Source: a bacterium (GTDB lineage Bacteria; Myxococcota; UBA727; JAUIJE01). Taken from it: 64,000 nt of DNA. Numbering within the stretch: the first letter of the stretch is position 1; every line of letters begins with the position of its first letter. This document shows, piece by piece, positions 6,276 through 36,829 of this stretch. The DNA is taken from NCBI GenBank assembly GCA_030431455.1, contig JAUIJE010000001.1, forward strand, positions 496,001 to 560,000, read 5' to 3'. The position numbers were made by a program, and so were the translations under genes. The notes under the pieces are model-generated. The model searched no databases and had not been told where the DNA came from. It saw only the letters and a list, made by a program, of their open reading frames with translations.

Positions 6276-7936
<1,661 letters not shown>

Positions 7937-8021
7937 CGGCACCTCCTGGCCCGGTCTTTTTCACGAATCGGCAAAACGCGCCACCGGGCCATCGACCGGT
8001 CGGTTGTGCTAAACCCGACGC

Positions 8022-8968: not shown

Positions 8969-8978
8969 CCGCTCGCCT

Positions 8979-9665: not shown

Positions 9666-9747
9666 ACATCCTCCTCGTCGGCACCGGGCACCGATCATCG
9701 AGCCGCACTGTACCGCGGAACCCACGCGGCCCGCACCCCGGACCGCT

Positions 9748-10305
9748 TCAGGCCAATTTGCTCGCCAAGCCCGCGGCGACCTTTTTTTGCATCCGCGCGA
9801 TGTCCTCTTTTTGCCAGGCCTGGGCCAAGCGCCGGGTCACAAACCGGGCGAACAGCCCGTCGATCACCGCATCGATCTCGTCGAGGGCGGCCAGTCGCAC
9901 GTCGAGCACGTCCGAGGCATCGCCTTCCCCCTCCTTGACCATGCCCTCGAAAAACCGCACCGAGGACAGCTGTGCATCCCGTCCCTTGAGGGTCACGGTG
10001 TACACCCGCTCATCCAGTGCCATTTGCAGCTCGAGCGTCTCCACCAGGGCGCCCCGCCGCAACGCCTGCAGCACCTCGCCACAATCGTCGAGGTCGGGCC
10101 CGGACAGGGCCACCCGGACCCCGCTCTGGTCGAGGGAGGTCAGCACCGTGCGTTTGCCGATGGCGAACGCCACCCGGTCGTGCTGGGGGCCGATGCCTTT
10201 TTCGAACGCCCCCGGGAGCTCGACCTCGTAGTCGCTTTCGTCGAGGAAGAAGTACAGCCAGGTCAAGAACTCCTGGCCGAGAAAACCCTTGTCGTGGTTA
10301 TCCAT
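9748..10305 (-). CDS. RdgC-like protein, C-terminal half as a separate gene
   Basis: A 185-residue protein. Its opening segment, GFLGQEFLTWLYF, matches the middle of the long RdgC-like proteins of myxobacteria and planctomycetes, where it follows the RdgC-type N-terminal domain in the same chain. The ATG at 10305 overlaps the stop of the upstream N-terminal half by eight bases (ATGGATAA). The pair therefore is either a natural two-gene form, a ribosomal frameshift, or a sequencing frameshift. RdgC binds DNA as a ring and restrains RecA; the extra C-terminal part has no known role. Confidence 0.55.
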   Translation of the reverse strand: MDNHDKGFLGQEFLTWLYFFLDESDYEVELPGAFEKGIGPQHDRVAFAIGKRTVLTSLDQSGVRVALSGPDLDDCGEVLQALRRGALVETLELQMALDERVYTVTLKGRDAQLSSVRFFEGMVKEGEGDASDVLDVRLAALDEIDAVIDGLFARFVTRRLAQAWQKEDIARMQKKVAAGLASKLA

Positions 10306-10945
10306 CGTCGTCTTCCTCGATGTGCCACGCGGGTTCGTACAGGGGCATCGGGCCCAACGCCTCGAGCACCGCCTGGGCGCGCTTGGACAGGTCGAGGGTG
10401 AACGCCCGGCGGGTGTAGTCGGCGAGGTGCAGACGCAGGTCAAACGTGCGTTCGAACAACGCCGAGACGCGCTCTTTGGCCAGCGCCCCCGCGGCGAACA
10501 CCCGCACCCGCCGCCGGCTGGTGTCCCACACCACGTCGACCACCCGGGGCCTTGGCAACACCCGGCGGCGAAGCTCGGCCAGGACCATGAGCTGCACCGT
10601 CTGTTTGACGTTGCGGGTGATTTTTTCCCCTTGCAGCTCGAGCTCGGCCAAGCGCTTTTGGGTCAAGTGCCGCACCAGGGGCTTGGGCAGGGCGATCTTG
10701 TCCTCGCGGTAGCAGAGCGCGATCACGTCCCCGAAGGCGAAGTCGCGGCTGGTCACCGGCGCGTCGTCGTCGAAGGGGGCTTCGAGCGGCGCCCAGCCGG
10801 CGGCCACCATGTCCTCGCCGCGCGCGGACAGGGGGGTGAAGCGCCGGGCTTCGATCGCTTGTTCGTATTGGGTGCGGTAGCCCTTGGGGGGCTCGCCGTC
10901 GACGTCAAACCGGAGAAAGGTCGCGGGACCGGACAGCACCCCCAT
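10298..10945 (-). CDS. RdgC-like protein, N-terminal half
   Basis: A 215-residue protein beginning with MGVLSGPATFLRFDV, the opening typical of the long RdgC-like family, followed by AAGWAPLEAPF, FGDVIALCYREDKIALP and ELRRRVLPRPRVVDVVW, which align in order with the GWVPP, IVICARKEEKILP and LLPRAF segments of E. coli RdgC (recalled, not computed). The ATG at 10945 lies in a TGATG junction with the stop of the upstream iron-sulfur gene, so translation is coupled. The C-terminal half is in the next, overlapping gene. Confidence 0.65.
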   Translation of the reverse strand: MGVLSGPATFLRFDVDGEPPKGYRTQYEQAIEARRFTPLSARGEDMVAAGWAPLEAPFDDDAPVTSRDFAFGDVIALCYREDKIALPKPLVRHLTQKRLAELELQGEKITRNVKQTVQLMVLAELRRRVLPRPRVVDVVWDTSRRRVRVFAAGALAKERVSALFERTFDLRLHLADYTRRAFTLDLSKRAQAVLEALGPMPLYEPAWHIEEDDDG

Positions 10946-11409
10946 CAGGTCGCGCCCCGGTCTTGGGCCTGCCGAATCACGTGCAGCTGGGCCTGCGCGT
11001 CCTCGGCAATGCTGAGGATGGGAATGCCCTCGGGGCATTCTGCCTCACACCGGCGACAATCTGTGCACACCGGGCTGGTGAGCAGCGCCAGCTCTTCTCC
11101 GGCGTCCGCGTAGTGCGGGGCCGCGCGGGCGCCGGACAGGACAAATGCCATTGGGCCGGTGAATTGGGTGTGAAGGCGGTCGGCCAACAGAGGGCAGACC
11201 TGATCACAAGCATTGCATGCGGTGCAGCGTCCCGCCTCGCGCCGCCGGCCCCGTTGTGCCGGTGACGCGGGCGGGAGCCCGTCGGGCACGTAGTTGGTCA
11301 AAAACCGTTCTTTTCCGAAGTCTTGGTGGAACGGGTTCAGCCGCCGCAGGTAGTGCAGCACCGTGCGGTACATGAGGTTCAGGTAGGCGTGCAGGAGCTT
11401 GAGATCCAC
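10945..11409 (-). CDS. Dicluster 4Fe-4S ferredoxin-type protein
   Basis: About 154 residues. Two cysteine motifs, CTACNACDQVCP and CTDCRRCEAECP, about 60 residues apart, would hold two [4Fe-4S] clusters, the second ending with the usual P after the fourth Cys. Such domains pass electrons in HdrC/GlpC-like or NuoI-like chains. The start is uncertain: a GTG at 11409 before LKLLHAYLNLMYRTVL is proposed and no clear ribosome site is seen; the frame stays open to 11595 but the upstream part looks non-coding. It is coupled by TGATG to the RdgC-like gene, an unusual partner. Confidence 0.7.
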   Translation of the reverse strand: MDLKLLHAYLNLMYRTVLHYLRRLNPFHQDFGKERFLTNYVPDGLPPASPAQRGRRREAGRCTACNACDQVCPLLADRLHTQFTGPMAFVLSGARAAPHYADAGEELALLTSPVCTDCRRCEAECPEGIPILSIAEDAQAQLHVIRQAQDRGAT

Positions 11410-11690
11410 GGCGCGCGCGAGCGTAGCAGGCGCGTTTGCCCCGACAAGCGGCGAAACCGCGACAAGGATGTCGTGACTTCTCAGATCAAGCGAACAGCAC
11501 GCCGCACCCCAGCGTCTCAGTGCGCCCCGCGCGCTGGCACATGCATTGCTCGACAACGATGTGCTTGGCGCAACAAACTGTTGACCGAGGCGCAATGAGG
11601 TCTTACTTCGTCCCGGTCATGTGTTTTGTGGCGCAGGGAGTGCGCAAATACGCGCACGTCAAATGACCCTTCCACGGGAGATAAGTAGTG
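11410..11690. other. Intergenic region between divergent genes
   Basis: About 280 bases without a convincing gene. It is less GC-rich than its surroundings near 11560-11690 and contains the short inverted pair TGCGC/GCGCA around AAATAC at about 11640-11657. It should hold the promoters of the iron-sulfur gene and of the Cys-rich lipoprotein; no consensus promoter stood out. Confidence 0.4.
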
Positions 11691-12959
11691 ATGAAAAGAA
11701 TCAACGAACTGTTCCTTCTTGGCTGTATCAGCGCCGGCGTGGCCGTGTTCGCTGCCTGCCCGAGCGACACCGGTGGCGGCGACGCTGGCGTTGAAGGTTG
11801 CACCGAAGACGCGGACTGCGCCGACGGTGAAGCTTGCCAGGTCTACACCGGCGAATGTGTGGCCACCTGCACCGCCGACGAAGACTGCGGCGACGCCACC
11901 CCGGTTTGCATCCCCGAAGACAGCACCACCGCGCTGGTGACTGGCATCTGCGGCTGCGACGACACCTCCTGCGCCGACGACGAGGTCTGCCACCCGACCG
12001 CCAATGTGTGTGTCACCGAGTGTGACCCCGCGGCCGAAGAAAATGAGTGCAACCCCGTCGGCGAAGACGACTACACCTGTTTTGCCAACGACGGCGTGGA
12101 CGCCTTTGTCTGCCAAGTCGCTTGCGAAGCGGACGCGGATTGCCCCAACGTGGCGCCGATTTGTGACCTCACCGCGGGCCAGTGCATCGGCCGGTGCGAC
12201 GGCCAAGAAGAGTTCCGCCTCGACTGCGACGAGCCCGGCGGCGAAATCTGCGACACCGCCACCGGCAAGTGCATCCAAGGCTGCGACGGCGACGCCGACT
12301 GCGACCCGGGTGAGCAATGCAACCTCGCCAACGGTGAGTGCTTCGCGGCCTGCACCGAAATCGGCAGCAACGCCGCGCCCTGCGGTGCCGACGAGGTGTG
12401 CGTGCCCGGCGACCCGAACAACAGCTGCGAAGCCGAGTGCGTCGACGACACCTGTCTGCTCGACGAAGAGCTGTGCTCGCTCGACACCACCGTCGACACC
12501 TTCAACGCCTGCATCGCGCCGGACGACGAGACCGGTTGGTGTGACAACGCCGCGGCCAGCGCCCTGAGCCACACCGCGGGCTCGCCCGTGATCGTCAACG
12601 TGGTGAACATCGCGTCCAGCACCGCGGGCAACTGCACCGGCACCGTCGAAGAGTTCGAGGCCACCGTGTACGCGCCGGGCGGTCTGCTCGACGACGGCAA
12701 CACCAACGGCGGCCAAGACCCGCTGTCGATCAACACCCGGTGGTTCGTGATCAGCGAAGACGGCAGCGCGAGCTACGGCTTCGACTTCCCCGGCGGGATG
12801 CAAGACGCGGCCAACCCGGACTTCTACTACGTGACCTTCGAGTCCTGCTACGAAGGCCTCGCCACCTACCTCGCCGCGGTCAACGCCGACGACGACCTGG
12901 TGGCCAACGGGGGCGCGACCAACACGTCCAACGTGTACTGCTTCGACCCCGTTCCCTGA
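11691..12959 (+). CDS. Cys-rich lipoprotein with Dickkopf-like repeats
   Basis: A 422-residue protein with a signal peptide and a lipobox-like end (VAVFAAC near residue 22). Residues 35-270 are repeated short disulfide modules with the pattern CxxDADCxxGExCxxxxGxCVxxC, seen in several copies (for example CTEDADCADGEACQ and GCDGDADCDPGEQC). The last 150 residues are a different, cysteine-poor domain (SPVIVNVVNI, TRWFVISEDGSASYGF). This layout is common in surface proteins of Myxococcota. The ATG at 11691 with GGGAG upstream is preferred over a GTG one codon before. A strong terminator follows. Confidence 0.75.
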   Translation: MKRINELFLLGCISAGVAVFAACPSDTGGGDAGVEGCTEDADCADGEACQVYTGECVATCTADEDCGDATPVCIPEDSTTALVTGICGCDDTSCADDEVCHPTANVCVTECDPAAEENECNPVGEDDYTCFANDGVDAFVCQVACEADADCPNVAPICDLTAGQCIGRCDGQEEFRLDCDEPGGEICDTATGKCIQGCDGDADCDPGEQCNLANGECFAACTEIGSNAAPCGADEVCVPGDPNNSCEAECVDDTCLLDEELCSLDTTVDTFNACIAPDDETGWCDNAAASALSHTAGSPVIVNVVNIASSTAGNCTGTVEEFEATVYAPGGLLDDGNTNGGQDPLSINTRWFVISEDGSASYGFDFPGGMQDAANPDFYYVTFESCYEGLATYLAAVNADDDLVANGGATNTSNVYCFDPVP

Positions 12960-15958: not shown

Positions 15959-16719
15959 GCCGCGCCTTCGACGAGCCCGGGCGCGGGGCGGGGTGCTTGA
16001 GCGACCTCGTCCTCGACGTGAAAGTCGCCGAGGGGCACCTGGCCGCGCCCGATGCCGCCCACCTCGAGACCTGCGCGGCGTGTGCGGCCCGGCTCTTGGT
16101 CCTCGAGGAGCAACAGCGCATCTGGGCCCCCGACGTGTTGCGTCTCGCCGCCCGGGCCAAGGCCCATGCCCGGCCCCGGGCCCGCGCGGTGTGGGCCCGT
16201 CGCCTGTTCGCGGGGTTGGTCCCGGCCGCCTGCGCCGCGGCCGCGTTGGTGTTCTTCGTCGTCGACGAAGCGCCCCCCGACCGGAGCAAGGGCGTGGCCA
16301 TGTCGCTGTTCGTGCAGCGTGACGGCGAGGTCTTCATCGGGGCGTCGGGCGATGCCTACCAAGCGGGGGACGCATTCCGGTTCCGGGTGCGGCCGCGGCA
16401 CCATCCATACTTTATGCTCGTGGGCGTGGATGGCCATGGACGGACCACGGTGTTCTACCCCCTCGGCGGCGACGCGGCGGCCCCGCTCGAGGACCACGAC
16501 GAGGTCCCGCTCGATGCCAGCCTGGTGCTCGACGACGCGCCGGAGCAGGAGTTCGTGCTCGGGGTGTTCGCGGATCGTGCGGTCACCGCCGGGGAGGTCG
16601 CGCGGGCGGTCGCGGCGGCGCGGGCCCGCGACGGGCGGTTGCACGAAGACGCGCTGCATGACGTGACCCTCGACGCTGAGCTGTCCTGGGTGGTGCTGAA
16701 CAAGGGAGCCCGACAATGA
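15955..16719 (+). CDS. Putative ZAS anti-sigma factor with periplasmic DUF4384-type domain
   Basis: A 254-residue protein with three parts. Residues 20-55 hold AHLETCAACAARLL, an H-x3-C-x2-C motif as in zinc anti-sigma domains. One membrane segment follows at about 85-105 (LFAGLVPAACAAAALVFFVV). The outside domain (RFRVRPRHHPYFMLVGVDGHGRTTVFYP) matches DUF4384, often found next to caspases and kinases. It would hold the ECF factor at the membrane until the outer domain senses something. It overlaps both neighbours by ATGA-type junctions. Confidence 0.8.
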   Translation: MSRAFDEPGRGAGCLSDLVLDVKVAEGHLAAPDAAHLETCAACAARLLVLEEQQRIWAPDVLRLAARAKAHARPRARAVWARRLFAGLVPAACAAAALVFFVVDEAPPDRSKGVAMSLFVQRDGEVFIGASGDAYQAGDAFRFRVRPRHHPYFMLVGVDGHGRTTVFYPLGGDAAAPLEDHDEVPLDASLVLDDAPEQEFVLGVFADRAVTAGEVARAVAAARARDGRLHEDALHDVTLDAELSWVVLNKGARQ

Positions 16720-18281
16720 TGCGCGCGCTCCTTGTCACAGTGTTGCTGCTTTGCTGTGCCCAGGCGTGGGCCGGCCCCCGGTGGGCGGTGGTGGTCGGCC
16801 ACAACGAAGGCCAGCGCGGTGAGGTCGAGCTCCGCTACGCCGAGACCGACGCGGCGAAGATGGAAAAGGCGCTCGTCGACCTCGGCCAGTACGAGAACGA
16901 CGACGTGTACCTGCTCACCGGGGTGTCGGCCGCGGATGTGCGCGGGGCCCTCGACGCGATGCTGGGGCGGAGCCGCCAACAGCAGGCCGAGTCGGTGATG
17001 TTCTATTTCTCGGGGCACGGGGACGGGGCGTCGCTCCACCTGGGCGAGTCCGAGCTGACCATGGAGGAGGTCCGTGATTTTCTCGACGAGGTCAACGCGG
17101 AGGTGAAGATCGCGATCATCGACGCGTGCAAGAGCGGCGCGATGGTCCGGGCCAAGGGCCTGACCGTGGGGCCGCCGTTCGCGGTGGACGCGATCCGCGA
17201 CCCCAAGGTCGAGGGCAGCGTGATCATCACCAGCTCCACCGGGGACGAAATCAGCCAGGAGAGCGATGAGCTGTTCGGCTCGTTCTTCACCCACTACTGG
17301 GTCAGCGGCCTGTACGGCGCCGCCGACAAGAACGACGACGGGCACGTCACCCTCGCCGAGGCGTACCAGTACGCGCACTACCAGACCGTGTCCCGCACCA
17401 TCGAGAGCCAGGGGGGCGTGCAACACCCGACCTTCGCCATGGACCTGACCGGTGAGGGCAGTGTGGTGCTCGCCGACCTCGGCCGCCGCACCGCCCAAAT
17501 CGTGCTGCGGGCCGACGGGGCCGCGGGCGATTACCTCATCCTCGACGCGGAGCGGGAGCTGGTGCTGCAAGAGGCGATCGAGAGCCACGGCGGCGAGGTT
17601 CGCGTGCCGTTGCCGCCCGGGCGGTACCGGATCAAGAAGCGCGAAAAGGAGCGCGTGCTCACCGCCGAGATCGACGTCGGCCAAGGCGACGCGACGGTGC
17701 TGCGCGACAAGGACATGAAGGTCTCGTCCATCCAGGGCGGTGACGCCAAGGGGGGCCTGACCCCGCTGTCGCTGTTCTCCGCGCTCACCCGCGCGGTCGG
17801 GGTCGAGGACCACGGCCCCGAGGTGTGGCTCGGGGCGCGCAGCTTTCTGGTTCAGGGATTGTCCCCCGGGCCCGAGCTCACCGCCGGTTACCGGGTGCGC
17901 TGGAAGTACGCGTTTGTGCAGCCGCGGGCGGCCGTGCGCCTGGCCACCTACCAGGCCGGCGGGGCCTACATGCAGAGCGAGCTGGACCTCGGCGCGGCGG
18001 TGGGCGGCAACATCGACGCCGGGCCGCTCTTGCTCGGGGGCGGGCTCGATGGCGGCGTGGTCGCGTTTCACCAGCAGGGCTTGCCCACCTTTGGCCCCCC
18101 GGCCGGGGTGCTGCCGGTGACCGCGCAGGGGCGCTTGTTTGGCGAGGTCGGCACCGATCTGTTCGACACCGTGCACGTCGGGGCCCGCACCTACGGTGGC
18201 GTGTCGGTCTACGGCATCAACGGGCTCATCCTCCCGTTCCCGCTCGTCGGGGCCCAGCTCGGGGTCTCCTATCGATTTTAG
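16716..18281 (+). CDS. Exported caspase-like (C14) protease with a barrel-like C-terminus
   Basis: A 521-residue protein. A signal peptide (residues 1-20) is followed by a caspase p20-like domain: WAVVVGHNEG, LRYAETDAAKMEKAL, the catalytic His101 in FYFSGHGD and Cys138 in AIIDACKSGA, then TSSTGDEISQES and FFTHYWVSGLYGAAD. Residues 250-335 look like a beta-sandwich (PLPPGRYRIKKREKERVL). The last 180 residues are alternating beta segments ending in LGVSYRF; a terminal Phe is the usual outer-membrane barrel signal. The protein is therefore probably outside the cytoplasm. Third gene of the ECF operon, with an ATGATG junction. Confidence 0.85.
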   Translation: MMRALLVTVLLLCCAQAWAGPRWAVVVGHNEGQRGEVELRYAETDAAKMEKALVDLGQYENDDVYLLTGVSAADVRGALDAMLGRSRQQQAESVMFYFSGHGDGASLHLGESELTMEEVRDFLDEVNAEVKIAIIDACKSGAMVRAKGLTVGPPFAVDAIRDPKVEGSVIITSSTGDEISQESDELFGSFFTHYWVSGLYGAADKNDDGHVTLAEAYQYAHYQTVSRTIESQGGVQHPTFAMDLTGEGSVVLADLGRRTAQIVLRADGAAGDYLILDAERELVLQEAIESHGGEVRVPLPPGRYRIKKREKERVLTAEIDVGQGDATVLRDKDMKVSSIQGGDAKGGLTPLSLFSALTRAVGVEDHGPEVWLGARSFLVQGLSPGPELTAGYRVRWKYAFVQPRAAVRLATYQAGGAYMQSELDLGAAVGGNIDAGPLLLGGGLDGGVVAFHQQGLPTFGPPAGVLPVTAQGRLFGEVGTDLFDTVHVGARTYGGVSVYGINGLILPFPLVGAQLGVSYRF

Positions 18282-21939: not shown

Positions 21940-22872
21940 TCAGGCCAAAAAGCAGGCCACGGGGAAGACCACGAACTCGAGGTAGAACAGCTTCCAAATG
22001 TTCATGTAGTAGCCGTACGCCTGGTCTGCGTCTTCGTCGTCGACCCCGCGGTGCATGAGCCAGACGAGGGCGAGCGCCACCGCGTGGCTCGCGATCAGCA
22101 CCCCGGAGTGGATGCCCCCGAGCCCGAGCAGCCCGACGACGACCATGCCGCCATAGGCCACGGTCAAGATGCCCCGGCAGATGAGCATGACCTTGCTCGC
22201 GCCGAGCCGGGCGGTGAAGGTCGAGATGTTGTGCATCTTGTCGCCCTGCAGGTCGGGCACGTCTTTCATCAACGCGATGACGACGACGAAGCAGAACATG
22301 AAGCCCACAAACGCGAGCACGTGACCGGGCAGCGTCAGCTCGCCCGACATCGCCTCGGAGAACGTGAGGTACACGCCGATGTTGCCCACCACCGCCCGGG
22401 CGAGGGTGATCGAGGCCGCGGCGAAGAAGGGGTGGCCCTTGAGGCGGAACGGCGGCAGCGAATACAGCGAGCCCAACGTAAAAATCGTGAGCACGGTGAA
22501 GAACAAGATTTGGCTCTGCCACAACGCGAGGGGCAAACAGAGCAGACCGCACACGATGACGATCGCCCGCCCGGTGGCGAACGAGAAGGCGCCCGCCGCC
22601 ACCGGCAGGTACGGCTTGTTGATGCGGTCGATGTCGACGTCGGTGAGCTGGTTGAGCCCGGTGATGTAGATGTTGAGCGTGATCGACGCGCTCCAGGTCA
22701 ACAGCAGCGCGCCGAGGTCGTGCGCGCCGGCCTTGGCCGCGGCGATGAGATAAAACACCCCCACCGCCATCGAGGTCCCGATGATGGTGTGCGGCCGGGT
22801 GAACTCCCAGAACGCGCGCAGGGCGCCCATCTTGGGCGCGCTGAGCTGCGGATCGGCGGTGGTTGTGGTCAC
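21940..22872 (-). CDS. Homogentisate prenyltransferase-like UbiA enzyme
   Basis: A 310-residue membrane protein with about nine hydrophobic segments. The start of the mature domain, FWEFTRPHTIIGT, is characteristic of homogentisate phytyl/prenyl transferases. The first Asp-rich site is NQLTDVDIDRINKPYLP and the second KDVPDLQGDKMHNI. Such enzymes join phytyl or prenyl diphosphate to homogentisate on the way to tocopherols or plastoquinone. The GTG start is chosen with AAGGA upstream. It follows the HPPD gene by 45 bases in the same direction; HPPD makes homogentisate, which supports the call. Confidence 0.85.
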   Translation of the reverse strand: MTTTTADPQLSAPKMGALRAFWEFTRPHTIIGTSMAVGVFYLIAAAKAGAHDLGALLLTWSASITLNIYITGLNQLTDVDIDRINKPYLPVAAGAFSFATGRAIVIVCGLLCLPLALWQSQILFFTVLTIFTLGSLYSLPPFRLKGHPFFAAASITLARAVVGNIGVYLTFSEAMSGELTLPGHVLAFVGFMFCFVVVIALMKDVPDLQGDKMHNISTFTARLGASKVMLICRGILTVAYGGMVVVGLLGLGGIHSGVLIASHAVALALVWLMHRGVDDEDADQAYGYYMNIWKLFYLEFVVFPVACFLA

Positions 22873-22917
22873 GACTGGTTCCTTAGCGAACGAAAGCCAG
22901 GTCCGAAAGGGCCCCGG

Positions 22918-24057
22918 TCACGGCCGCACCCGGACGGTCTGGGCCTTTTCCACCCCTTCGAACAGCGCCCGGAAGTTGCCCGCGCCGAATCCGCGGTCGC
23001 CCTTGCGCTGGATGAGCTCGAAGAAGAAAGGGCTCTTTTTGGGGTCGCCCTCGAACCGGGCCGCGTCCTCCATGAACAGCTGGAGCAGGTAGCCCTCGTC
23101 CTTGTCCCCGTCGACGAGGATTTCGTGGTGGCGCAGCTCGTCGATGGACTCCTCGAGGGGGCCGATGCCGAGCCGCTCGAGGCGGGCGGGCAGCTTGTCG
23201 TAGTAGCCGCCGGGGGTGTTGACGAAGCGCACGCCCCGTTCGCGCAGCTCGGGCACCGAGCTCATGATGTCGGTCAGCTCGATGGCCGCGTGCTGGACGC
23301 CGTTGCCGCGCTGGTCGGCGCAGAACAGCGCGATCTGCGACTTGTCGAAGTTGGGCCGCACCGGCTCGTTGTTGGCGAACTTGAGCTGCGAGCCTTCGTC
23401 GTACATCACCACCGAGCGCAGACCGGTGCCGCCGTCGTCCTCGGGCTCGATGTCGTTGGTGTGGAACTCGACGTCCCAGTACCGGGAGAAGCCCAACACG
23501 TGCTCGAACCAGAGCAGGGCGGGGCTCATGGTCTGAAAGTTGGACGTGATGTGGTCGTACTTGGTGAAACCGAAGCGATTCTGGCCGCCCTTGGGCTTGT
23601 CGTGGGGGATGAAGCCGGGCAAGGGGGCGCCGCCGGGGCGGCGCTGCACAAAATAGAACAGCACGTCGTCGAGCGGGGTGGTGATGGAAAAGATGCCAAG
23701 CCCTTCGTCCGACGAGAACCGTTGCACATCGGAGGTCGGGGTGCCCCCCCGGCGGTCGAGGATGCCGAGGGCCTTTTCCACGTCGCTGACCTCGAGGGCG
23801 ATGCCGCCGATGCCTTCGGGATGCCGGCGCAGGTAACGCTCGGCCGGGCCTTCCCCGAGGGGCTCGCTGCACACCACCACGCAGTCGCCGGCTTGGAAGA
23901 TCGCCGATCGTTGCCGGGTGCGGCGCTCCAGCTCGGGGCTGGACACCGCGACCTCGGCGAAGTCGAGCCGGTCGACGAGAAACCGGCGGTTGCCTTCGAG
24001 CGAATGGCAAAACCGGTGCAGCGCACAGATGCCTTGGATACCGAGGTTGTGGGGCAT
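22918..24057 (-). CDS. hppD: 4-hydroxyphenylpyruvate dioxygenase
   Basis: A 379-residue non-haem iron enzyme that makes homogentisate from 4-hydroxyphenylpyruvate. The iron ligands are visible as His in FTKYDHITSNF, His in GVQHAAIELTDI and Glu in the C-terminal FFFELIQRKGDRGFGAGNF. Two vicinal-oxygen-chelate halves are present; the N-terminal one is degenerate as usual. GGAGG lies upstream of the ATG. It sits between two UbiA-type genes with gaps of 34 and 45 bases, so the three form an operon; a catabolic partner such as homogentisate dioxygenase is not nearby. Confidence 0.94.
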   Translation of the reverse strand: MPHNLGIQGICALHRFCHSLEGNRRFLVDRLDFAEVAVSSPELERRTRQRSAIFQAGDCVVVCSEPLGEGPAERYLRRHPEGIGGIALEVSDVEKALGILDRRGGTPTSDVQRFSSDEGLGIFSITTPLDDVLFYFVQRRPGGAPLPGFIPHDKPKGGQNRFGFTKYDHITSNFQTMSPALLWFEHVLGFSRYWDVEFHTNDIEPEDDGGTGLRSVVMYDEGSQLKFANNEPVRPNFDKSQIALFCADQRGNGVQHAAIELTDIMSSVPELRERGVRFVNTPGGYYDKLPARLERLGIGPLEESIDELRHHEILVDGDKDEGYLLQLFMEDAARFEGDPKKSPFFFELIQRKGDRGFGAGNFRALFEGVEKAQTVRVRP

Positions 24058-24091
24058 GTGTCCTCCAGGGCCGCCGCAGCGGGCCCGCTTC

Positions 24092-25006
24092 TCAAGTGCC
24101 TACGGAAAGTTGCGGGACGTGGTTCAGCACTGCCAGTGCGACGAAACACACCCCGCCGAAGAGCGCGGAAATCCAGCCCATTCTCACCGCGTTGGTGTGA
24201 TCGGCCGCGCCGGTGTCCTTGCGGACCTGCAGCCACCACCAGCCGACGAAGCCGCCGGGGGCCAAAAAGAGCGCCGTGAGCAGGGCGAGGTGGCCGAGCT
24301 TGTCGATGTGAAAAAAATACGCCGCGACCACGACCCAACCGACGGTGAGCACCGCTTGGCACACCAAGAATGTGCCGTTGTAGCCGAGCAACATCGCGAT
24401 GGTGACGTCGCCGCGGGCCGCGTCCTCCTCGAACTGGTAGACCTGCGACAGCGGGTACGAGCCGGCGACGAGGAAGGTGCAAAAGAGCGCGGGCAGCAGG
24501 ATGTCCAGCGTGCCGACGTGCTGGAGCACGGCGAGGGGGTCGGCGGAGATGCCGACCATGACCATCACGTACGAAAACCCGCCCTGAAAAAACGCGACCC
24601 AGATGTACCCCACGACGGGCATGCCCTTCACCCGCGTCCTGTCGCTGCTGTACGCGCGCGAGGCGAGGATGGTGACGGCGATGAACGCGGTGAAGTAGAG
24701 GTTGACGACGACGGACAACCCCAGCGCGATGGCCTCGAGCCCCCACACCAGCCAGAGCAGGCTGACGTGGACCTCGGGCGGCTTCTCGATGCCGCCGGTG
24801 GGGGCCTCGTCTTTGTCGTAATAGGCGTTGTAGCCAACGCTGGCGGGGAAGATGAGCAGGTGGAGGATGCCCACCGTGAGCAGGATCCGGTCCCAATGCA
24901 GTGCGTCAACCTGGGAAATGGCGAACAGGACCACCGGGGCCACGTGGAGGGTGTTTTTGATCCGCAGGTGGACGAGGTTTTCTCGGAGACGCTGTGACCA
25001 GGTCAT
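24092..25006 (-). CDS. UbiA-family prenyltransferase of unknown substrate
   Basis: A 304-residue membrane protein with eight or nine hydrophobic segments. The first Asp-rich motif is NAYYDKDEAPTGGIEKP and the second, QVYQFEEDAARGDVTIAMLLG, resembles the D-x-R-GK-T-A-LLG loop of MenA. It is clearly distinct from the homogentisate enzyme two genes downstream. It could prenylate another aromatic acid or act as a chlorophyll-synthase-like transferase. It is the first gene of the leftward operon with hppD. Confidence 0.8.
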   Translation of the reverse strand: MTWSQRLRENLVHLRIKNTLHVAPVVLFAISQVDALHWDRILLTVGILHLLIFPASVGYNAYYDKDEAPTGGIEKPPEVHVSLLWLVWGLEAIALGLSVVVNLYFTAFIAVTILASRAYSSDRTRVKGMPVVGYIWVAFFQGGFSYVMVMVGISADPLAVLQHVGTLDILLPALFCTFLVAGSYPLSQVYQFEEDAARGDVTIAMLLGYNGTFLVCQAVLTVGWVVVAAYFFHIDKLGHLALLTALFLAPGGFVGWWWLQVRKDTGAADHTNAVRMGWISALFGGVCFVALAVLNHVPQLSVGT

Positions 25007-25020
25007 GGCGGCCGGGGTCT

Positions 25021-25064
25021 AAGGCTCTGTCGGCGGCTGCGCAATGCGGACAGAGCCTTTTAGT
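25021..25064 (+). terminator. Leader hairpin with a T-rich 3' side
   Basis: An eleven-base perfect stem AAGGCTCTGTC/GACAGAGCCTT with a 17-base loop, followed on the + strand by TTTA. It sits between divergent genes, in the leader of the polyprenyl synthase gene 110 bases downstream, so it may be an attenuator or part of a small RNA rather than an end of a gene. Confidence 0.45.
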
Positions 25065-25173
25065 GGGGAACGATCTGGGCTACAGCCTGACCGCGGTCCA
25101 CTTTGGGCCGCGCCGCCGTCCGGTGGCCGCCGCACCGGCGTCCCGCCGACCGTTGATCGATCCTGGGGAGACC

Positions 25174-26232
25174 ATGGACACTGCTGCTTCGGCCAAAGAC
25201 CGCCTCGACGCCCTGCTGGCCCGCGATGAAGACGCGCTCGCCCGCACCGAGCGCCTGATGGAGCACATGACCGGGGAGCGCGAGCCCCTCGCCACCGTGC
25301 TGCGGCAGCACCTGCGCACCGGGGGCAAACGCATCCGGGCCCGGCTCGCCATCGCCGCCGGCCGCGCGCTCGGCGCCGACCCGGCCCGCCTCATCCCGTG
25401 GGCCGCGGCCTGCGAGATGTTGCACAACGCGACCTTGATCCACGACGACCTGCAGGACGGCGACACCGTGCGCCGGGGCCACCCCACGATCTGGGTCGAG
25501 TACGGCGCCGCGCAGGCGATCAACGCCGGCGACCTCATGCTCATGTTGCCGTTTTTGGCCACCGATCAAGTCGACGCGCCGGCGCGGACCCGGGCCGCGT
25601 TGTCGGCGCTGGTGGCCCGTTCGGCGTGTACGACCGTGCACGGCCAGGCGATGGAGCTGGTGTTGCCCGACGCGGCCCCCGAGGACCTGCATGGGGCTTA
25701 CATCCGCGCCATCGAGGGCAAGACCTCGGCGCTGTTCGGCCTGCCCGTCGAGGGCGCGGCCCTGGTCGCGGGGCGCGACATGGACGCGGTGGCGATCGCC
25801 ACGCCGTTCACGCGGCTGGGCACGTTGTTTCAGTTCCAGGACGACGTGCTCGACCTGTACGGCGAAAAGGGCCGGGCCGAGCGGGGCGCGGACCTCAAAG
25901 AGGGCAAGGTCAGCTCGCTGGTGGTGCACCACCTGCTGCACCACCCGGGCGACCGCGAGTGGCTGTTCGACCTGCTCTCGGCCCCGCGGGAGGAGACCGC
26001 GGAGGACGCGGTCCACGACGCCATCGAACGGTTCCGCACCGGCGGGGCCTTGGGCTCGGTGCTCAAGGAGATGCGCGCCATCGCCGACGCCGTGACCGGT
26101 GACGCCACCCTGGCCGGGATGCCGGACCTGCAAGCCATGGCCACGCTGTTTGTGGAGTTGGTGGTCCAGCCCATCGCCCACCTGTGGAACGAGCCGGCCG
26201 CCCCCGCGCTCAGCCACCCCGCGGCGAACTAA
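25174..26232 (+). CDS. Polyprenyl (geranylgeranyl-type) diphosphate synthase
   Basis: A 352-residue trans-prenyltransferase that lengthens allylic diphosphates with isopentenyl diphosphate. The N-terminal GGKRIRARL, the first Asp-rich motif DDLQD from residue 91, and the second FQDDVLD at 222-227 are all present. Small versus bulky residues before the first motif set chain length; HNATLIHDD here does not decide between C20 and longer products. The start is the ATG at 25174 with GGGGAG upstream. It diverges from the UbiA-hppD operon, so it may supply the side chain for the prenylated homogentisate. Confidence 0.9.
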   Translation: MDTAASAKDRLDALLARDEDALARTERLMEHMTGEREPLATVLRQHLRTGGKRIRARLAIAAGRALGADPARLIPWAAACEMLHNATLIHDDLQDGDTVRRGHPTIWVEYGAAQAINAGDLMLMLPFLATDQVDAPARTRAALSALVARSACTTVHGQAMELVLPDAAPEDLHGAYIRAIEGKTSALFGLPVEGAALVAGRDMDAVAIATPFTRLGTLFQFQDDVLDLYGEKGRAERGADLKEGKVSSLVVHHLLHHPGDREWLFDLLSAPREETAEDAVHDAIERFRTGGALGSVLKEMRAIADAVTGDATLAGMPDLQAMATLFVELVVQPIAHLWNEPAAPALSHPAAN

Positions 26233-31234: not shown

Positions 31235-34200
31235 CTACTCGATGCCGAGGAAATAGGGGGTCTCGCCGCCCCCGGCGACCACCACCAGCAATGACATCGC
31301 CCCCGCGGGCACCGGCACGATGCCGTCCCCGGGGCCGTTGATGGTCTGGATGATGGTGAAGTCGCTCTCGTCGACGAACGTCACCGCGGCGGTGGCCGCG
31401 GGGTCGGCGTCGAGGAACACGAACAGCTCCGGTTGCCCGAACAAGAACACCCGGAAGAAGTCGATGTCGCCGTTGCACAGCGTCGCGTCGATGAACGCGG
31501 GGGTCATCAGGCCGGGGGGGGCGAGGGGGTCGTCGTTGGGCTCGAACGCGTCGGGCACGCAGGCGGGCTCTTCGATCTGCACCTGAATCTGGTAGCGCCG
31601 CGCGTCGAACGGCCCGACCGCCACCCCGGTGACCACCGCGTAGGCGGGGCCGCTGAACGCCGCGGTGAACGTCACGGTCTCGACGCCGCCGCCGCCCGAC
31701 GACGTGCCCACCAGCTCGCCCCCCTCGCGGTACACCTCGAGGGTCATGCCCGGCGGCGCGTCGTACTCGAGGGTCACGGTGCCGATGAAGCCGGCGTCGA
31801 TGTTGAACTCGTAAAAGTCGGGATCGTCGGGGCACAGGTCCGCGTTGGTGAAGCTCTCGCCGATGAAGGTCGCGTCCTCGAAGGTGTCGTTTTCCTCGGA
31901 GAGGTCGTCTTCGCATTCCGGGAAGTCACAGATCCAGTTCATGGTGGGGTTGGGGGTGGTGGGGGGCTGGCAGTTGTCGAACCCGCAGGCGTCATCGGTG
32001 GTGTTCACGCAGTCGTTCTCGTCGAACGCCCCGCACCCACAATCACAGATGCCGTCGCCGAACCAGAACGGCGAGCAGGTCCACTCGTCGGGGATCTCGA
32101 GTTCGCAGGTGGCCGAGCAGCCGTCCCCGTCGAGGTTGTTGCCATCGTCGCACTCTTCGCTGCCCTCTTGCTGCCCGTTGCCGCAGAAGGGCTCGACCTG
32201 GCAACTGGCGTTGCAGCCGTCGCCGGATTGCACATTGCCGTCGTCACACTCTTCGGGGAACTCGACCACGCCGTTGCCGCAGCTCTCGATGTCGCACAGG
32301 TAGTTCTCGTCGTCGACGGGGGGGAAGCCACCCGGGCAGTTGTTCACATCGCAGAACTGCGCGTCGGCCGATTCGCAATCGGGGTCGAGGGCCCCGCAGC
32401 CACAGTCGCAGCTGTTGCCGCTGCCGTAGAACGCGGGGAAACACACCCAGGCGTCGGGGATCTCCCACTCGCAGTCCTCGTCGCAGCCGTCGCCGGGCTG
32501 GTTGTTCCCGTCGTCGCACTCCTCGGGGAACTGCAGGGCGCCGTCGCCACAGGTGGGAAACTCCACCAAACATTCCGGGGAACACCCGTCGCCGGGCAGG
32601 AGGTTGCCGTCGTCGCACTCCTCGCCGGGATCGAGAATGAAGTTGCCGCACAGGCCCTCGAGCAGGCAGTTCTCGTCACAGCCGTCGCCGGGGAGGGTGT
32701 TGCCGTCGTCGCACTGTTCGCCGGCTTCCACTTGGCCGTTGCCGCAGGCGGGCTCGATTTGGCAGTTGGCGTTGCAGCCATCGCCGTTTTGGGTGTTGCC
32801 GTCGTCGCACTGCTCGGGGGGCTCGATCATGCCGTTGCCGCAGCTGGGGAGCAGGCACAGGGGGTTGTTGTCGGGTACGGGTTGGACACCGCCGGGGCAG
32901 TTGTTGAACTCGCACACGCTGGCGTTGAGCGACGGGCAGTCGCTGTCTTGCACCGCGCACCCGCAGTCACAGATGCCGTCGCCAAACCAGAACACGGGGC
33001 AGGTCCAGCCCACCGGGACCTCGACCTGGCACGTCGACGAGCAGCCATCGCCGTTTTGGGTGTTGCCGTCGTCGCATTGTTCGCCGGGCTCGAGCTGGCC
33101 GTTGCCGCAGGTGGGGCCCTCCACCGTGCAGTTGGGCGAGCACCCGTCGCCGGGCAGGTTGTTGCCGTCATCGCACTGCTCGGGGAACTGGATGACGCCG
33201 TCGCCACAGATGCCCTCGACGGTGCAAAATGGGGAGCAGCCGTCACCGGGCTGGTTGTTGCCGTCGTCGCATTGCTCCGGGGGTTCGAGGATGCCGTTGC
33301 CGCAGTCGGTCTCGATGAGACAGCCCGCGCTGCAGCCGTCTCCAGAGACATTGTTGCCGTCGTCACACTGTTCGCCCGGGTCGAGCACGCCGTTGCCGCA
33401 GGGGGCTTCGGCGCAGAACCGGTTGTCGTCGGGGAGGGTCAGGCCCGCGTCGCAGTTGATGAACTCGCACACCCCGGGGTCGATGGTGGGGCAGTCGCTG
33501 TCGAGCGCGGTGCAGCCGCAGTCGCACAGCCCGTCGCCATAGAACTGCGGCACGCAGCTCCAGTCCGCGGGGATCATGTCCTCGACCTGGCACAGGGCGT
33601 TGCAGCCGTCCCCAGAGACATTGTTGCCGTCGTCGCACTGCTCGGGGGGCTCGAGGGTGCCGTTGCCGCAGGTGGGGGCCTCGAGGCGGCAGTCCTGGTT
33701 GCAGCCGTCGCCGTTTTGGGTGTTGCCGTCGTCGCACTCCTCGGGGAACACCACCACGCCATCGCCGCACACGTTCGCCTCTTCGCACATGGGGTTTTGT
33801 TGGGGCACGGGGGAGAAGCCGGGGGGGCAGTTGTCCCGGGCACACACCGCCGCGGACAAGGTGGGGCAGTCGATGTCGAACACATCGCAGCCGCAGTCGC
33901 AGGTCCCGTCGAGGTAGAAGCTCGCGGTGCAGGTCCAGCCCGCGGGGGGCTCGACCTGGCACGTCGACGAGCAGCCATCGCCGTTTTGGGTGTTGCCGTC
34001 GTCGCACTCCTCACCGGCCTGGATGAAGCCGTTGCCGCAGGTCCCGCCCTCGGTCACGCAGTTGGCGTTGCAGCCGTCGCCGTTTTGGGTGTTGCCGTCG
34101 TCGCATTGCTCGGGGGGTTCGACCACGCCGTTGCCGCACTGGTCGATGTTGCAGAGCCAGTTCTGGTTGGGGAGGGGGTCGAAGCCGGTGGGGCACTGGT

Positions 34201-35911
34201 TGAACTGGCAGACGCCGGCCGAGCCCGACGCGCAGTCGAGGTCGATGACCCCGCAGCCGCAGTCACAGGACTCGTGGTTGTAATACTCGGGGGGGCAGGT
34301 CCAGCCCGCGGGGATCTCCACCAGGCACAGGGCCGAGCAACCGTCGCCGGGCGTGGTGTTGCCGTCGTCGCACTCCTCGCCGGGGTCGAGGGTGCCGTTG
34401 CCGCAGGGGGCTTCGATTTCGCAGAGGGGCGAACACCCGTCGCCGCCGATGAGGTTGCCGTCGTCACAGCCTTCCCCGGGGTCGAGCACACCGTTGCCGC
34501 AATCGGGCAGCTCGGTGGTGCAGAACGCCGAGCAGCCATCGCCGCCGGTGAGGTTGCCGTCGTCGCACTGTTCGACCCCGGCCCAGGTGATGCCGTCGCC
34601 GCACCGCGCGTCCCGGCAGGTGCTGGTGCAGGAATCGGTGTCTACGAAGTTGCCGTCGTCGCACTCCTCCCCGAGCTGGACCGTGCCATCCCCGCAGTCG
34701 GCCTCCGCGGTGCAGCTCGCGGAGCAGCCGTCACCGGGCAGGTTGTTGCCGTCGTCGCACTGCTCCGGGAACTCCACAATGCCATTGCCACAGACCGCCT
34801 CAGTGGTGCACACCGGGCTGCACCCGTCGCCCCCCACGAGGTTGCCGTCGTCGCACTGCTCGCCGGGGTCCAGCGTGCCGTTGCCGCAGAAGGCGTTGCC
34901 GGGGTCGTTGACCTGCATGCTGTAGCGGTTGGTCGCGCCCTGGAACCCGTACACCTCCAAGAGGTAGTCGCCGGGGTCGTTGCCCACGAAGAAGCTGATG
35001 TACTCGTTGTCGTTGGTGCTGTTGGAGTCGGCCACCACCTGGCCGGAGGGGGCGATGAGTTGGGCGTCGATGTCCCCCTCGGCGTGGCTGAAGTAGACCG
35101 TGGCCACAATGTCAGTGAAGGACTCGCGCCGCACCACGAACAGATCGCGGTCGTCCTCGCAGATGCGCGCCTCGACGCTGTTGCCGTACCCGGTGGTGGC
35201 TTGCGCGGCGGTGTCGTTGGGCTCGAAGGGGTCCGTGCAGGCCGCGCCCTCGTGGTCGACGACCAGCTCGTAGGCCACCGCATCGGCGAGGCCGGGGCCA
35301 AACACGCGCACGTACCGGGTGCTGCTCAACACCCGGTCGTCGGCCACCGACTCGGTGGTGCCCGCGCCGTTGGACGCGTCGAGCACGGTGCCGTCCGCGC
35401 CGTACAGCTCGAGGTCGACGTTGCCCACGCCAGGGAACGAGATGTCCACCCGCACCGCGCTGGGCGTCGTCGGGGACAGGGCGAACCAGTCTTCGTCCCC
35501 GGGGCACAAGTTGAACTCGTAGGTGTCGGGGGCGAGGGGGCGCGCCTCGGGGCGGCTGTCGTTGTCCTCCTGGTCGTCGTCGTCGCAGGGCGCGGGCACC
35601 GCGGGGGGCGAAGGATCGGGGCACTCGCCGTCGGGGTAGCCGCCCGGCCGCACACACGCGCCGCCGGCGCCGGACCCCCGCAGGCACACCTCGTCGAGGG
35701 GGCAGTCGGCGTCGCTCTCGCAGGTGTAGGCGCACACGCCCTCGCGGCACACCGGCTGGTAACACGCCTCATCCCCGTCCTCGCACCCGACGGTGGGCAG
35801 GTCGGCGCAGTCGCTGTCCGTCTCACAGCAGGGCGGGGGCGGGCAGCCCGCGGCCCAGGCCACGGTGACCAAGGACAGGCTCAGGAGCGAGGCGCGGCGC
35901 ATGCCGGTCAT
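31235..35911 (-). CDS. Giant Cys-rich DUF4215-repeat lipoprotein
   Basis: A 1558-residue surface protein. A signal peptide ends at a lipobox-like WAAGC. After a Cys-rich part and two PPC-like beta domains (DEDWFALSP), twenty DUF4215 repeats run from about residue 340 to 1330, with the core CGNGxxxPGEQCDDGN-GDGC. Six copies of a second module (W-x-C, then CDCGC, then D-x-D-C and a Cys near the end) follow repeats 6, 8, 10, 14, 18 and 20. PPC-like domains close the protein. The ATG at 35911 with GGAGGA is chosen; a second ATG is at 35902. The function is likely a rigid surface stalk or adhesin, by analogy. Confidence 0.85.
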   Translation of the reverse strand: MTGMRRASLLSLSLVTVAWAAGCPPPPCCETDSDCADLPTVGCEDGDEACYQPVCREGVCAYTCESDADCPLDEVCLRGSGAGGACVRPGGYPDGECPDPSPPAVPAPCDDDDQEDNDSRPEARPLAPDTYEFNLCPGDEDWFALSPTTPSAVRVDISFPGVGNVDLELYGADGTVLDASNGAGTTESVADDRVLSSTRYVRVFGPGLADAVAYELVVDHEGAACTDPFEPNDTAAQATTGYGNSVEARICEDDRDLFVVRRESFTDIVATVYFSHAEGDIDAQLIAPSGQVVADSNSTNDNEYISFFVGNDPGDYLLEVYGFQGATNRYSMQVNDPGNAFCGNGTLDPGEQCDDGNLVGGDGCSPVCTTEAVCGNGIVEFPEQCDDGNNLPGDGCSASCTAEADCGDGTVQLGEECDDGNFVDTDSCTSTCRDARCGDGITWAGVEQCDDGNLTGGDGCSAFCTTELPDCGNGVLDPGEGCDDGNLIGGDGCSPLCEIEAPCGNGTLDPGEECDDGNTTPGDGCSALCLVEIPAGWTCPPEYYNHESCDCGCGVIDLDCASGSAGVCQFNQCPTGFDPLPNQNWLCNIDQCGNGVVEPPEQCDDGNTQNGDGCNANCVTEGGTCGNGFIQAGEECDDGNTQNGDGCSSTCQVEPPAGWTCTASFYLDGTCDCGCDVFDIDCPTLSAAVCARDNCPPGFSPVPQQNPMCEEANVCGDGVVVFPEECDDGNTQNGDGCNQDCRLEAPTCGNGTLEPPEQCDDGNNVSGDGCNALCQVEDMIPADWSCVPQFYGDGLCDCGCTALDSDCPTIDPGVCEFINCDAGLTLPDDNRFCAEAPCGNGVLDPGEQCDDGNNVSGDGCSAGCLIETDCGNGILEPPEQCDDGNNQPGDGCSPFCTVEGICGDGVIQFPEQCDDGNNLPGDGCSPNCTVEGPTCGNGQLEPGEQCDDGNTQNGDGCSSTCQVEVPVGWTCPVFWFGDGICDCGCAVQDSDCPSLNASVCEFNNCPGGVQPVPDNNPLCLLPSCGNGMIEPPEQCDDGNTQNGDGCNANCQIEPACGNGQVEAGEQCDDGNTLPGDGCDENCLLEGLCGNFILDPGEECDDGNLLPGDGCSPECLVEFPTCGDGALQFPEECDDGNNQPGDGCDEDCEWEIPDAWVCFPAFYGSGNSCDCGCGALDPDCESADAQFCDVNNCPGGFPPVDDENYLCDIESCGNGVVEFPEECDDGNVQSGDGCNASCQVEPFCGNGQQEGSEECDDGNNLDGDGCSATCELEIPDEWTCSPFWFGDGICDCGCGAFDENDCVNTTDDACGFDNCQPPTTPNPTMNWICDFPECEDDLSEENDTFEDATFIGESFTNADLCPDDPDFYEFNIDAGFIGTVTLEYDAPPGMTLEVYREGGELVGTSSGGGGVETVTFTAAFSGPAYAVVTGVAVGPFDARRYQIQVQIEEPACVPDAFEPNDDPLAPPGLMTPAFIDATLCNGDIDFFRVFLFGQPELFVFLDADPAATAAVTFVDESDFTIIQTINGPGDGIVPVPAGAMSLLVVVAGGGETPYFLGIE
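31925..34895 (-). repeat. Array of DUF4215 repeats and six CDCGC modules
   Basis: The coding repeat holds twenty DUF4215 copies, about 100 bases each, interrupted by six longer units whose CDCGC core lies near 34260, 33894, 33519, 32964, 32403 and 32039. Copies share much nucleotide identity, so slippage or recombination may change copy number. Confidence 0.8.
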
Positions 35912-36046
35912 GGATCCTCCGACGACGGGCCGGACAAAAACCGGCCTGCGGAAGCATAGAGGATGAACCCCGGTTGCGCTCGTCGATTGCCGGTCCCAAA
36001 GATCGACGCGAACCGGCGGCGCGGAAGCCGCGCAAGGAGGGCCCGG

Positions 36047-36829
36047 GTGCGGCTGATCAGCTGGAACATCAACGGCGTACGCGCGGTGCACAAACGGGGC
36101 GAACTGGATTGGGCGTTCACCACCGAGGACGCGGACGTCGTGTGCTTGCAGGAGACCAAGGTCTCCGCCGAGGACCTGCCGCGGTCCCTGTCCCACCCCG
36201 AGGGGTGGAAGAGCCTGTATAACCCCGCGGAAAGAAAAGGGTATTCGGGTGTGGCCACCTACCTTCGAGAGGACTTGGCGCCCGCCGCGTGGGCCCCCGG
36301 GTTGGGCCTCGACCGCTTCGACGGGGAGGGGCGCGTCATCCGCTGCGACCTCGACGCGTTTGTTCTGTACAACATCTACTTTCCCAACGGCGGACGCGGG
36401 CCCGAGCGCCTCGCGTTCAAGCTGGATTTCTACGACGCGGTGTTCGACCAGCTCACCGCCCTGGTCGACCAAGGCCGCGAAGTGGTGCTCTGCGGGGACG
36501 TCAACTGCGCCCACCGGGACATCGACATCCACGACCCCGCGCGTTTCGCCGGGCACACCGGCTTTTCCCAAAAGGAGCGCGCCTTCGTGGACCGGCTCCT
36601 CGACGCCGGCTTCGTGGACTCCTTCCGGGCCGAGCACGGTGACCTCGAGCGACAGTTCACCTGGTGGGACAACTACCGCAACTACCGGCCCAAGAACGAC
36701 GGCTGGCGCATCGACTACTTCTTCATCACCGAAGGCCTCGAGGAGGTCATGGTCGACGCCTGGATTTCGCCGCACATCATGGGCAGCGACCATTGCCCCA
36801 TCGGGCTCGAGCTCGACATCGACCTCTAG
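36047..36829 (+). CDS. xth: Exodeoxyribonuclease III family AP endonuclease
   Basis: A 260-residue DNA repair enzyme that cuts abasic sites. All motifs are present: ISWNINGVRA at the start, CLQETK, NIYFPNGG, the metal site LCGDVNCAHRDIDI, WWDNYRNYRPKNDGWRIDYF and the C-terminal GSDHCPI. The start is the GTG at 36047 behind AAGGAGG; the upstream open frame is leader. It reads away from the DUF4215 gene and is followed, 41 bases later, by polA; the two act in base-excision repair. Confidence 0.93.
   Translation: MRLISWNINGVRAVHKRGELDWAFTTEDADVVCLQETKVSAEDLPRSLSHPEGWKSLYNPAERKGYSGVATYLREDLAPAAWAPGLGLDRFDGEGRVIRCDLDAFVLYNIYFPNGGRGPERLAFKLDFYDAVFDQLTALVDQGREVVLCGDVNCAHRDIDIHDPARFAGHTGFSQKERAFVDRLLDAGFVDSFRAEHGDLERQFTWWDNYRNYRPKNDGWRIDYFFITEGLEEVMVDAWISPHIMGSDHCPIGLELDIDL

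What the first reader, a model, noticed from the sequence alone, without database searches (positions are those of the whole stretch)
21940..26232. Gene set for a prenylated homogentisate product (tocochromanol or plastoquinone-like) in a non-cyanobacterial genome
HPPD, a homogentisate-prenyltransferase-like UbiA enzyme and a second UbiA enzyme sit in one operon, with a polyprenyl diphosphate synthase reading away from it. HPPD makes homogentisate and the HPT-type enzyme uses it; no homogentisate-breaking gene is near. Tocopherol and plastoquinone making is classically known from plants, algae and cyanobacteria. The reductase, methyltransferase and cyclase are not in the window, so the end product is open.
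Basis: partly seen in the sequence, partly recalled or inferred. Interest (0 to 1): 0.75.

Follow-up and report, generated by a model that had tools for sequence, protein, structure and literature searches.

The report
Vitamin-E-type prenylation operon in myxobacterium-like genome
A bacterium that looks non-photosynthetic carries a small operon pairing the enzyme that makes homogentisate with the enzyme that attaches a lipid tail to it, so it probably makes a vitamin-E- or plastoquinone-like lipid, but the genes that would finish tocopherol itself were not found.

Summary
On the minus strand UbiA2 (24092-25006), HPPD (22918-24057) and HPT (21940-22872) lie 34 and 45 bp apart; a polyprenyl diphosphate synthase reads away from them. 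The prenyltransferase is an HPT by profile (340 bits, cut-off 226), by motifs and by tree: it joins 34 other HPTs (100/99), beside an actinomycete HPT (52% identical) and outside the cyanobacteria sampled. Only 2 of 195 genomes of the phylum hold an HPT over the cut-off. The HPPD is of the phylum's own type, which in relatives sits in tyrosine-breakdown operons (FAH in 6 of 8 loci read). Here it is tied to HPT, and no homologue of the relatives' FAH was found; 0 of 80 collected HPT loci elsewhere carry an HPPD. So a prenylated homogentisate product is well supported. The named end products are not: no tocopherol cyclase, no close tocopherol methyltransferase, only a sub-threshold geranylgeranyl-reductase homologue. 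The genome also has a homogentisate dioxygenase domain on another contig, and menaquinone genes. Most likely product: a 2-methyl-6-prenyl-1,4-benzoquinol/quinone. A distant relative (G030) has an MT-cyclase-MT-HPT operon, a tocopherol-type cluster. All is prediction from sequence; no lipid has been seen.

The parts
21940..22872 (-). HPT: homogentisate prenyltransferase, UbiA superfamily, 310 aa; NQLTDVDIDRINKPYLP and KDVPDLQGD motifs
   Evidence: NF009525 340 bits over cut-off 226; motifs; tree
22918..24057 (-). HPPD: 4-hydroxyphenylpyruvate dioxygenase, 379 aa, of the phylum's own second HPPD class
   Evidence: TIGR01263 238.4 bits, under cut-off 277; solved HPPDs to 2e-40; H/H/E ligands and clade
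24092..25006 (-). UbiA2: second UbiA-superfamily prenyltransferase of an unnamed subfamily, 304 aa; NAYYDKDE and EEDAARGD motifs
   Evidence: PF01040 35.7 bits over cut-off 34.2; 4 of 195 genomes of the phylum have a match, own included; motifs shared by 3 aligned members
25021..25059 (.). Perfect 11-bp inverted repeat, 17-bp spacer (AAGGCTCTGTC/GACAGAGCCTT), 14 bp before the UbiA2 start in the divergent promoter region; possible operator or hairpin
   Evidence: the DNA search: 1 match in the window, 0 in 100 shuffles; pattern taken from this sequence
25174..26232 (+). Polyprenyl diphosphate synthase, 352 aa, DDLQD and DDVLD motifs, divergent from the operon
   Evidence: PF00348 171.1 bits; NCBIfam matches all under cut-off; motifs

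Best explanation
The operon makes a prenylated homogentisate derivative. HPPD turns tyrosine-derived 4-hydroxyphenylpyruvate into homogentisate. HPT decarboxylates and prenylates it at the membrane, using a prenyl diphosphate that the divergent synthase can supply, to give a 2-methyl-6-prenyl-1,4-benzoquinol, which oxidises to the quinone. The lipid is made beside menaquinone and probably serves as antioxidant or extra electron carrier. UbiA2 is probably a second prenyltransferase of the same route, acceptor unknown. Shown by sequence: gene identities, operon layout, HPT clade, absence of a cyclase hit. Inferred: activities, chain length, product and role.
For: HPT profile far over cut-off. 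HPT clade 100/99 in a 48-row tree and 100/100 against the nearest outgroup in a 37-row tree. DD motifs kept. HPPD ligands kept and class-2 clade. HPPD lies between two prenyltransferase genes here, whereas in relatives it lies with FAH, MaiA and HGD-like genes; no homologue of that FAH in the genome (best 20 bits). The HPPD model gives only two matches in the own genome, best E 4.3e-70 (the second place is not listed there). Menaquinone genes (MenA and MenD over cut-off, MenF-like) account for the usual quinone separately. Of the five UbiA-superfamily proteins, the three outside the window are CyoE-like, MenA and HAD-UbiA, so none is a named 4-hydroxybenzoate UbiA.
Against: HPPD scores below its curated cut-off. 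A homogentisate dioxygenase domain exists elsewhere in the genome (422.9 bits, itself below the cut-off 510.75), so homogentisate may be broken down. Presence of a FAH of another type (TIGR01266) was not searched. The closest HPT (Actinacidiphila) has no HPPD within its locus. No activity or lipid data.
Confidence: 0.68

Rival explanations
1. The pathway goes on to a true tocochromanol or plastoquinone, with methylation and cyclisation done by enzymes not related to the known ones.
For: 12 generic methyltransferase matches in the genome; a GG-reductase-family protein with a YYWDFP motif; relative G030 has cyclase and two methyltransferases with its HPT.
Against: No PF14249 match in G000; best methyltransferase match 51 bits; in 55 of 80 collected HPT loci a gamma-TMT-like gene lies in the locus, none in this window. 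GG-reductase homologues in Myxococcota can be sterol C-24 reductases (PMC12004948, passages read).
Confidence: 0.15
2. The two prenyltransferases make a specialised meroterpenoid from another or further modified aromatic, as AuaA of Stigmatella does with a quinoline; homogentisate is only a starting block.
For: Patchy distribution: HPT 2 of 195 and UbiA2 4 of 195 genomes; UbiA2 passes no named family's cut-off; AuaA and Ubi-297 show UbiA enzymes with such acceptors (PMC9235831, passages read).
Against: No tailoring genes recognised in the flanking genes (not every gene of the window was scanned); HPT sits in the HPT clade and not apart.
Confidence: 0.2
3. The HPPD serves tyrosine breakdown with the homogentisate dioxygenase on contig C28, and its place beside HPT is chance.
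For: Relatives of this HPPD sit in breakdown operons; an HGD domain with HRN, TE and TPHG motifs exists in G000.
Against: HPPD lies between two prenyltransferase genes with 34 and 45 bp gaps; no homologue of the relatives' FAH; the HGD is part of a fused Fe-ADH/esterase/HGD protein on another contig.
Confidence: 0.1

Closest known systems
Cyanobacterial tocopherol pathway (HPPD, HPT, MPBQ methyltransferase, tocopherol cyclase, gamma-TMT)
   Same: HPT of the same family, 44-47% identical to the nearest cyanobacterial ones; homogentisate from HPPD
   Different: No cyclase or close methyltransferase found; HPPD is linked to HPT, which is seen in 0 of 80 collected HPT loci; HPT falls outside the sampled cyanobacterial clade
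Plant plastoquinone route (HPPD plus homogentisate solanesyltransferase)
   Same: Homogentisate prenylated by a UbiA enzyme; a polyprenyl synthase nearby
   Different: No plant sequence could be compared; chain length unknown; methyltransferase not identified
Methyl-plastoquinone of Nitrospirota and cyanobacterial plastoquinone
   Same: Benzoquinone lipids outside or inside photosynthesis
   Different: Those routes use homologues of the Ubi proteins (PMC13386864, section 5 and passages read; that they start from 4-hydroxybenzoate is recalled; Elling 2025 not held); no named 4-hydroxybenzoate UbiA in this genome
Myxobacterial AuaA (aurachin) and Ubi-297 prenyltransferases
   Same: UbiA enzymes in heterotrophic bacteria that prenylate aromatics
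   Different: Quinoline acceptors (PMC9235831, passages); no HPPD partner named in what I read
G030 MT-cyclase-MT-HPT operon (L057)
   Same: HPT of the same loose group (94/72 support), same phylum
   Different: Has cyclase and two methyltransferases, no HPPD recognised beside it; HPT only 39% identical

Membership tests
Homogentisate prenyltransferase (HPT) | Scores over the curated family cut-off | tested here: met
   NF009525 340 bits, cut-off 226
Homogentisate prenyltransferase (HPT) | Both Asp-rich motifs of the HPT kind | tested here: met
   NQLTDVDIDRINKPYLP and KDVPDLQGD; same patterns in 77 and 82 of 82 rows
Homogentisate prenyltransferase (HPT) | Falls in the HPT clade, not with UbiA, MenA or other UbiA | tested here: met
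   100/99 in 48 rows; 100/100 in 37 rows; no plant rows
Homogentisate prenyltransferase (HPT) | Decarboxylating prenylation of homogentisate | not testable with these tools
   needs an assay
4-hydroxyphenylpyruvate dioxygenase | Over TIGR01263 cut-off | tested here: not met
   238.4 against 277 bits; a relative of the same clade scores 278.2
4-hydroxyphenylpyruvate dioxygenase | Two-His-one-Glu iron site and C-terminal GFGxGNF | tested here: met
   aligned with solved HPPDs and 16 relatives; which residues are the ligands is recalled
Tocopherol pathway | Tocopherol cyclase | tested here: not met
   no PF14249 match in G000; 22 of 195 genomes over cut-off
Tocopherol pathway | MPBQ and gamma-tocopherol methyltransferases | tested here: inconclusive
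   only generic matches, best 51 bits, with a two-row model from G030; plant/cyanobacterial MPBQ-MT itself not used as query
Tocopherol pathway | Geranylgeranyl reductase | tested here: inconclusive
   143.5 bits against cut-off 158.8
Plastoquinone (plant type) | Homogentisate solanesyltransferase and long-chain synthase | tested here: inconclusive
   synthase profiles lean to short chains (IdsA 117, GGPP 111, octaprenyl 83, solanesyl 59 bits, all under cut-off); no HST sequence to compare
Homogentisate breakdown operon | FAH of the kind used by relatives | tested here: not met
   one match of 20 bits; other FAH types not searched

The most novel reading that the evidence does not exclude
A non-photosynthetic bacterium turned the tyrosine-breakdown HPPD of its own phylum into a biosynthetic gene by coupling it with a non-cyanobacterial lineage of HPT, and so makes a homogentisate-derived, higher-potential prenylquinone as a second redox lipid beside menaquinone: a third bacterial route to a plastoquinone-like carrier, next to the cyanobacterial and Nitrospirota ones.
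Probability: 0.35. Interest if true: 0.8.

Novelty: new variant of a known kind. Interest (0 to 1): 0.6.

Why it matters
A 2026 survey of 26,264 bacterial genomes reports the plastoquinone pathway only in oxygenic cyanobacteria and suggests that further quinones remain to be found (PMC13386864, section 5); its main text does not mention homogentisate. An HPPD-HPT operon in what appears to be a heterotroph gives a concrete, testable candidate for a bacterial homogentisate-derived quinone and shows HPT lineages outside cyanobacteria, which bears on where tocopherol and plant plastoquinone enzymes came from.

Tried and rejected
Rejected: HPT as a misnamed UbiA or MenA; HPT as a recent copy from the sampled cyanobacteria (those rows form one side of a branch, 100/99 without G030 and without outgroup, but only 76/100 with outgroup; holding the window HPT with the cyanobacteria apart from the other two is not rejected, p-AU 0.353); G030 tocopherol operon as cyanobacterial contamination (its contig shares a lipoprotein-like gene 56% identical to one in G031 of the same family). 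Led nowhere: plasmid searches with HPT and UbiA2 gave no match; UbiA2 has no solved relative by sequence; the UbiA2 model has mean pLDDT 40.8 and was not used for fold searches. The chain length of the synthase stays open: profiles lean to short chains, while Ala five residues before the first DDxxD would lean to longer ones (rule recalled, residue). Tatlockia and Gracilibacteria hits (L110, L069) are probably misbinned cyanobacterial contigs: both fall inside the cyanobacterial group and L110 has no end branch beside its cyanobacterial sisters. Limits: the GTDB scan used two exact peptide patterns and kept the best 80 of 232 relatives, so counts of non-cyanobacterial HPTs are lower bounds; the HPT trees used 33 of those 80 loci.

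Paper searches made. I saw listings for these; outline and passages of PMC12324825; outline, section 5 and passages of PMC13386864; passages of PMC12004948, PMC9235831 and PMC5133447. None of what I saw described an HPPD-HPT operon or tocopherol genes in Myxococcota; the library lacks most subscription papers.
Full report
Observation. The window holds, on the minus strand, UbiA2 (24092-25006), an HPPD (22918-24057) and an HPT (21940-22872), with 34 and 45 bp between them, and a polyprenyl diphosphate synthase reading away on the plus strand, most likely from ATG 25174 to 26232. A protein kinase gene on the plus strand ends at 21924, which bounds the operon on that side. A perfect 11-bp inverted repeat lies 14 bp before the UbiA2 start (25021-25059; 0 in 100 shuffles, the pattern being read off this place).

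Identity of the parts. The HPT scores 340 bits against the homogentisate phytyltransferase model, cut-off 226. Both Asp-rich motifs are of the HPT kind. In a 48-row tree it lies in a group of 35 HPTs (100/99) apart from MenA, HAD-UbiA, UbiA2 and other UbiA rows, and its sister is the HPT of Actinacidiphila oryziradicis (96/82; 52% identical). With two nearer outgroup rows all 35 HPTs are one side of a branch (100/100); that the window HPT could attach nearer the cyanobacteria than the other two is not rejected (p-AU 0.353). The HPPD scores 238.4 bits, below its cut-off of 277, but matches solved HPPDs to 2e-40, keeps the iron ligands, and groups (100/100) with eight class-2 HPPDs of the phylum, to which it is 42-56% identical; one of these scores 278.2, over the cut-off. 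UbiA2 is a UbiA-superfamily protein that passes no named family's cut-off; homologues of 28-30% identity were found in 3 other genomes of 195 and two of them align with it at 30-33% and share the Asp motifs.

Distribution. HPT over cut-off: 2 of 195 genomes of the phylum, the own one and G030. The own genome is the only one of its family held, and none of the other 15 genomes of its order has an HPT over the cut-off. In a GTDB scan with two exact peptide patterns, 232 relatives were found and 80 kept; by record title 77 of the 80 are cyanobacterial, two (L069, L110) are titled otherwise but fall inside the cyanobacterial group, and the best is the actinomycete (33 of the 80 were in the tree). 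In those 80 loci a gamma-TMT-like methyltransferase was found in 55, a cyclase-like protein in 2 and an HPPD in 0.

Recruitment of HPPD. Nine loci with the phylum's class-2 HPPD were fetched (a tenth short stretch, L182, was not used). In one (L177) my ORF selection found no HPPD. In 6 of the other 8 I read an FAH-like gene nearby (by eye; four aligned, one tested by Pfam); a MaiA (tested in L180) and weakly HGD-like genes also occur. In the window genome a model of that FAH found one match of 20 bits. So the gene that relatives keep for tyrosine breakdown stands here between two prenyltransferases. Against this: the genome has an HGD domain (PF20510 319.8 bits; TIGR01015 422.9 bits, cut-off 510.75) as the C-terminal part of a 979-aa protein with Fe-ADH and esterase domains on contig C28, so some homogentisate may be oxidised; FAH of other types and MaiA were not searched in the whole genome.

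What is missing. No PF14249 tocopherol cyclase in the genome, whose completeness is given as 96.87%. The two methyltransferases of G030, used as a model, found only generic matches, best 51 bits. A GG-reductase-family protein has 143.5 bits against a cut-off of 158.8 and a YYWDFP motif; in Myxococcota such proteins can be sterol C-24 reductases (PMC12004948, passages). The genome has menaquinone genes: MenA and MenD over cut-off, a MenF-like protein below it, with MenG-, MenC- and MenE-like frames read by eye. The five UbiA-superfamily matches are CyoE-like (191.9 bits, cut-off 210.3, partial sequence), MenA, HAD-UbiA, HPT and UbiA2; none is a named 4-hydroxybenzoate prenyltransferase.

Mechanism. 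4-hydroxyphenylpyruvate to homogentisate (HPPD), then decarboxylation and prenylation (HPT) to a 2-methyl-6-prenyl-benzoquinol: these steps follow from established chemistry of the families. Chain length is unresolved: profiles of the synthase lean to short chains. UbiA2's step is unknown.

Comparison and novelty. It works like the first committed steps of tocopherol and plant plastoquinone synthesis; membership of the HPT family is met on every sequence test made; membership of the tocopherol pathway is not, since the cyclase was searched and not found. The survey PMC13386864 reports the plastoquinone pathway only in Cyanobacteriia and cites methyl-plastoquinone in Nitrospirota (section 5 and passages). 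My ten paper searches showed nothing on this operon. I call it a new variant of a known kind.

Side finding. G030, another genome of the phylum, has MT-cyclase-MT-HPT in one operon (L057 12757-9143, minus strand), with a GG-reductase-family protein over cut-off elsewhere (206.1 bits): a gene set for tocopherol-type chromanols in what appears to be a heterotroph. Its contig shares a lipoprotein-like gene with a genome of the same family, which argues against contamination.

Noticed in passing
L057 (G030:C65:15601-35551) 9143-12757, minus strand: Methyltransferase, tocopherol cyclase (PF14249 66.4 bits), methyltransferase and HPT in one overlapping operon in another genome of the phylum: a tocopherol-type cluster outside cyanobacteria.
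   Followed up: partly
L063 (Actinacidiphila oryziradicis) 8968-9915: An HPT in a streptomycete relative, 52% identical to the window HPT, with no HPPD, cyclase or tocopherol methyltransferase in the locus.
   Followed up: partly
L056 (G000:C28:6000-20000) 5434-8373, minus strand: A 979-aa fusion of Fe-ADH, esterase-like and homogentisate dioxygenase domains, beside a LysR-like gene.
   Followed up: partly
window 25021-25059: Perfect 11-bp inverted repeat with 17-bp spacer in the divergent promoter region of UbiA2 and the polyprenyl synthase.
   Followed up: partly
L206 3431-4318, L208 2097-3011: UbiA2-like prenyltransferases (DKDEGPIGG type) of an unnamed subfamily in G031 and G033, without HPPD or HPT recognised beside them.
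   Followed up: partly
window 31235-36793, minus strand: Very long cysteine-rich protein gene; about 18 imperfect 70-nt repeats encode CGNGxxExxEQCDDGN-like units.
   Followed up: no
window 16716-18281: Caspase-like (Peptidase_C14, 53.2 bits) protein gene downstream of a gene that looks like a sigma factor.
   Followed up: no
L059 6474-7400 (G182) and L011 (G181): HPT-like but separate UbiA enzymes (91-96 bits to the HPT model, under the cut-off); the G182 one lies beside genes that look like radical SAM enzymes and a polyprenyl synthase.
   Followed up: no
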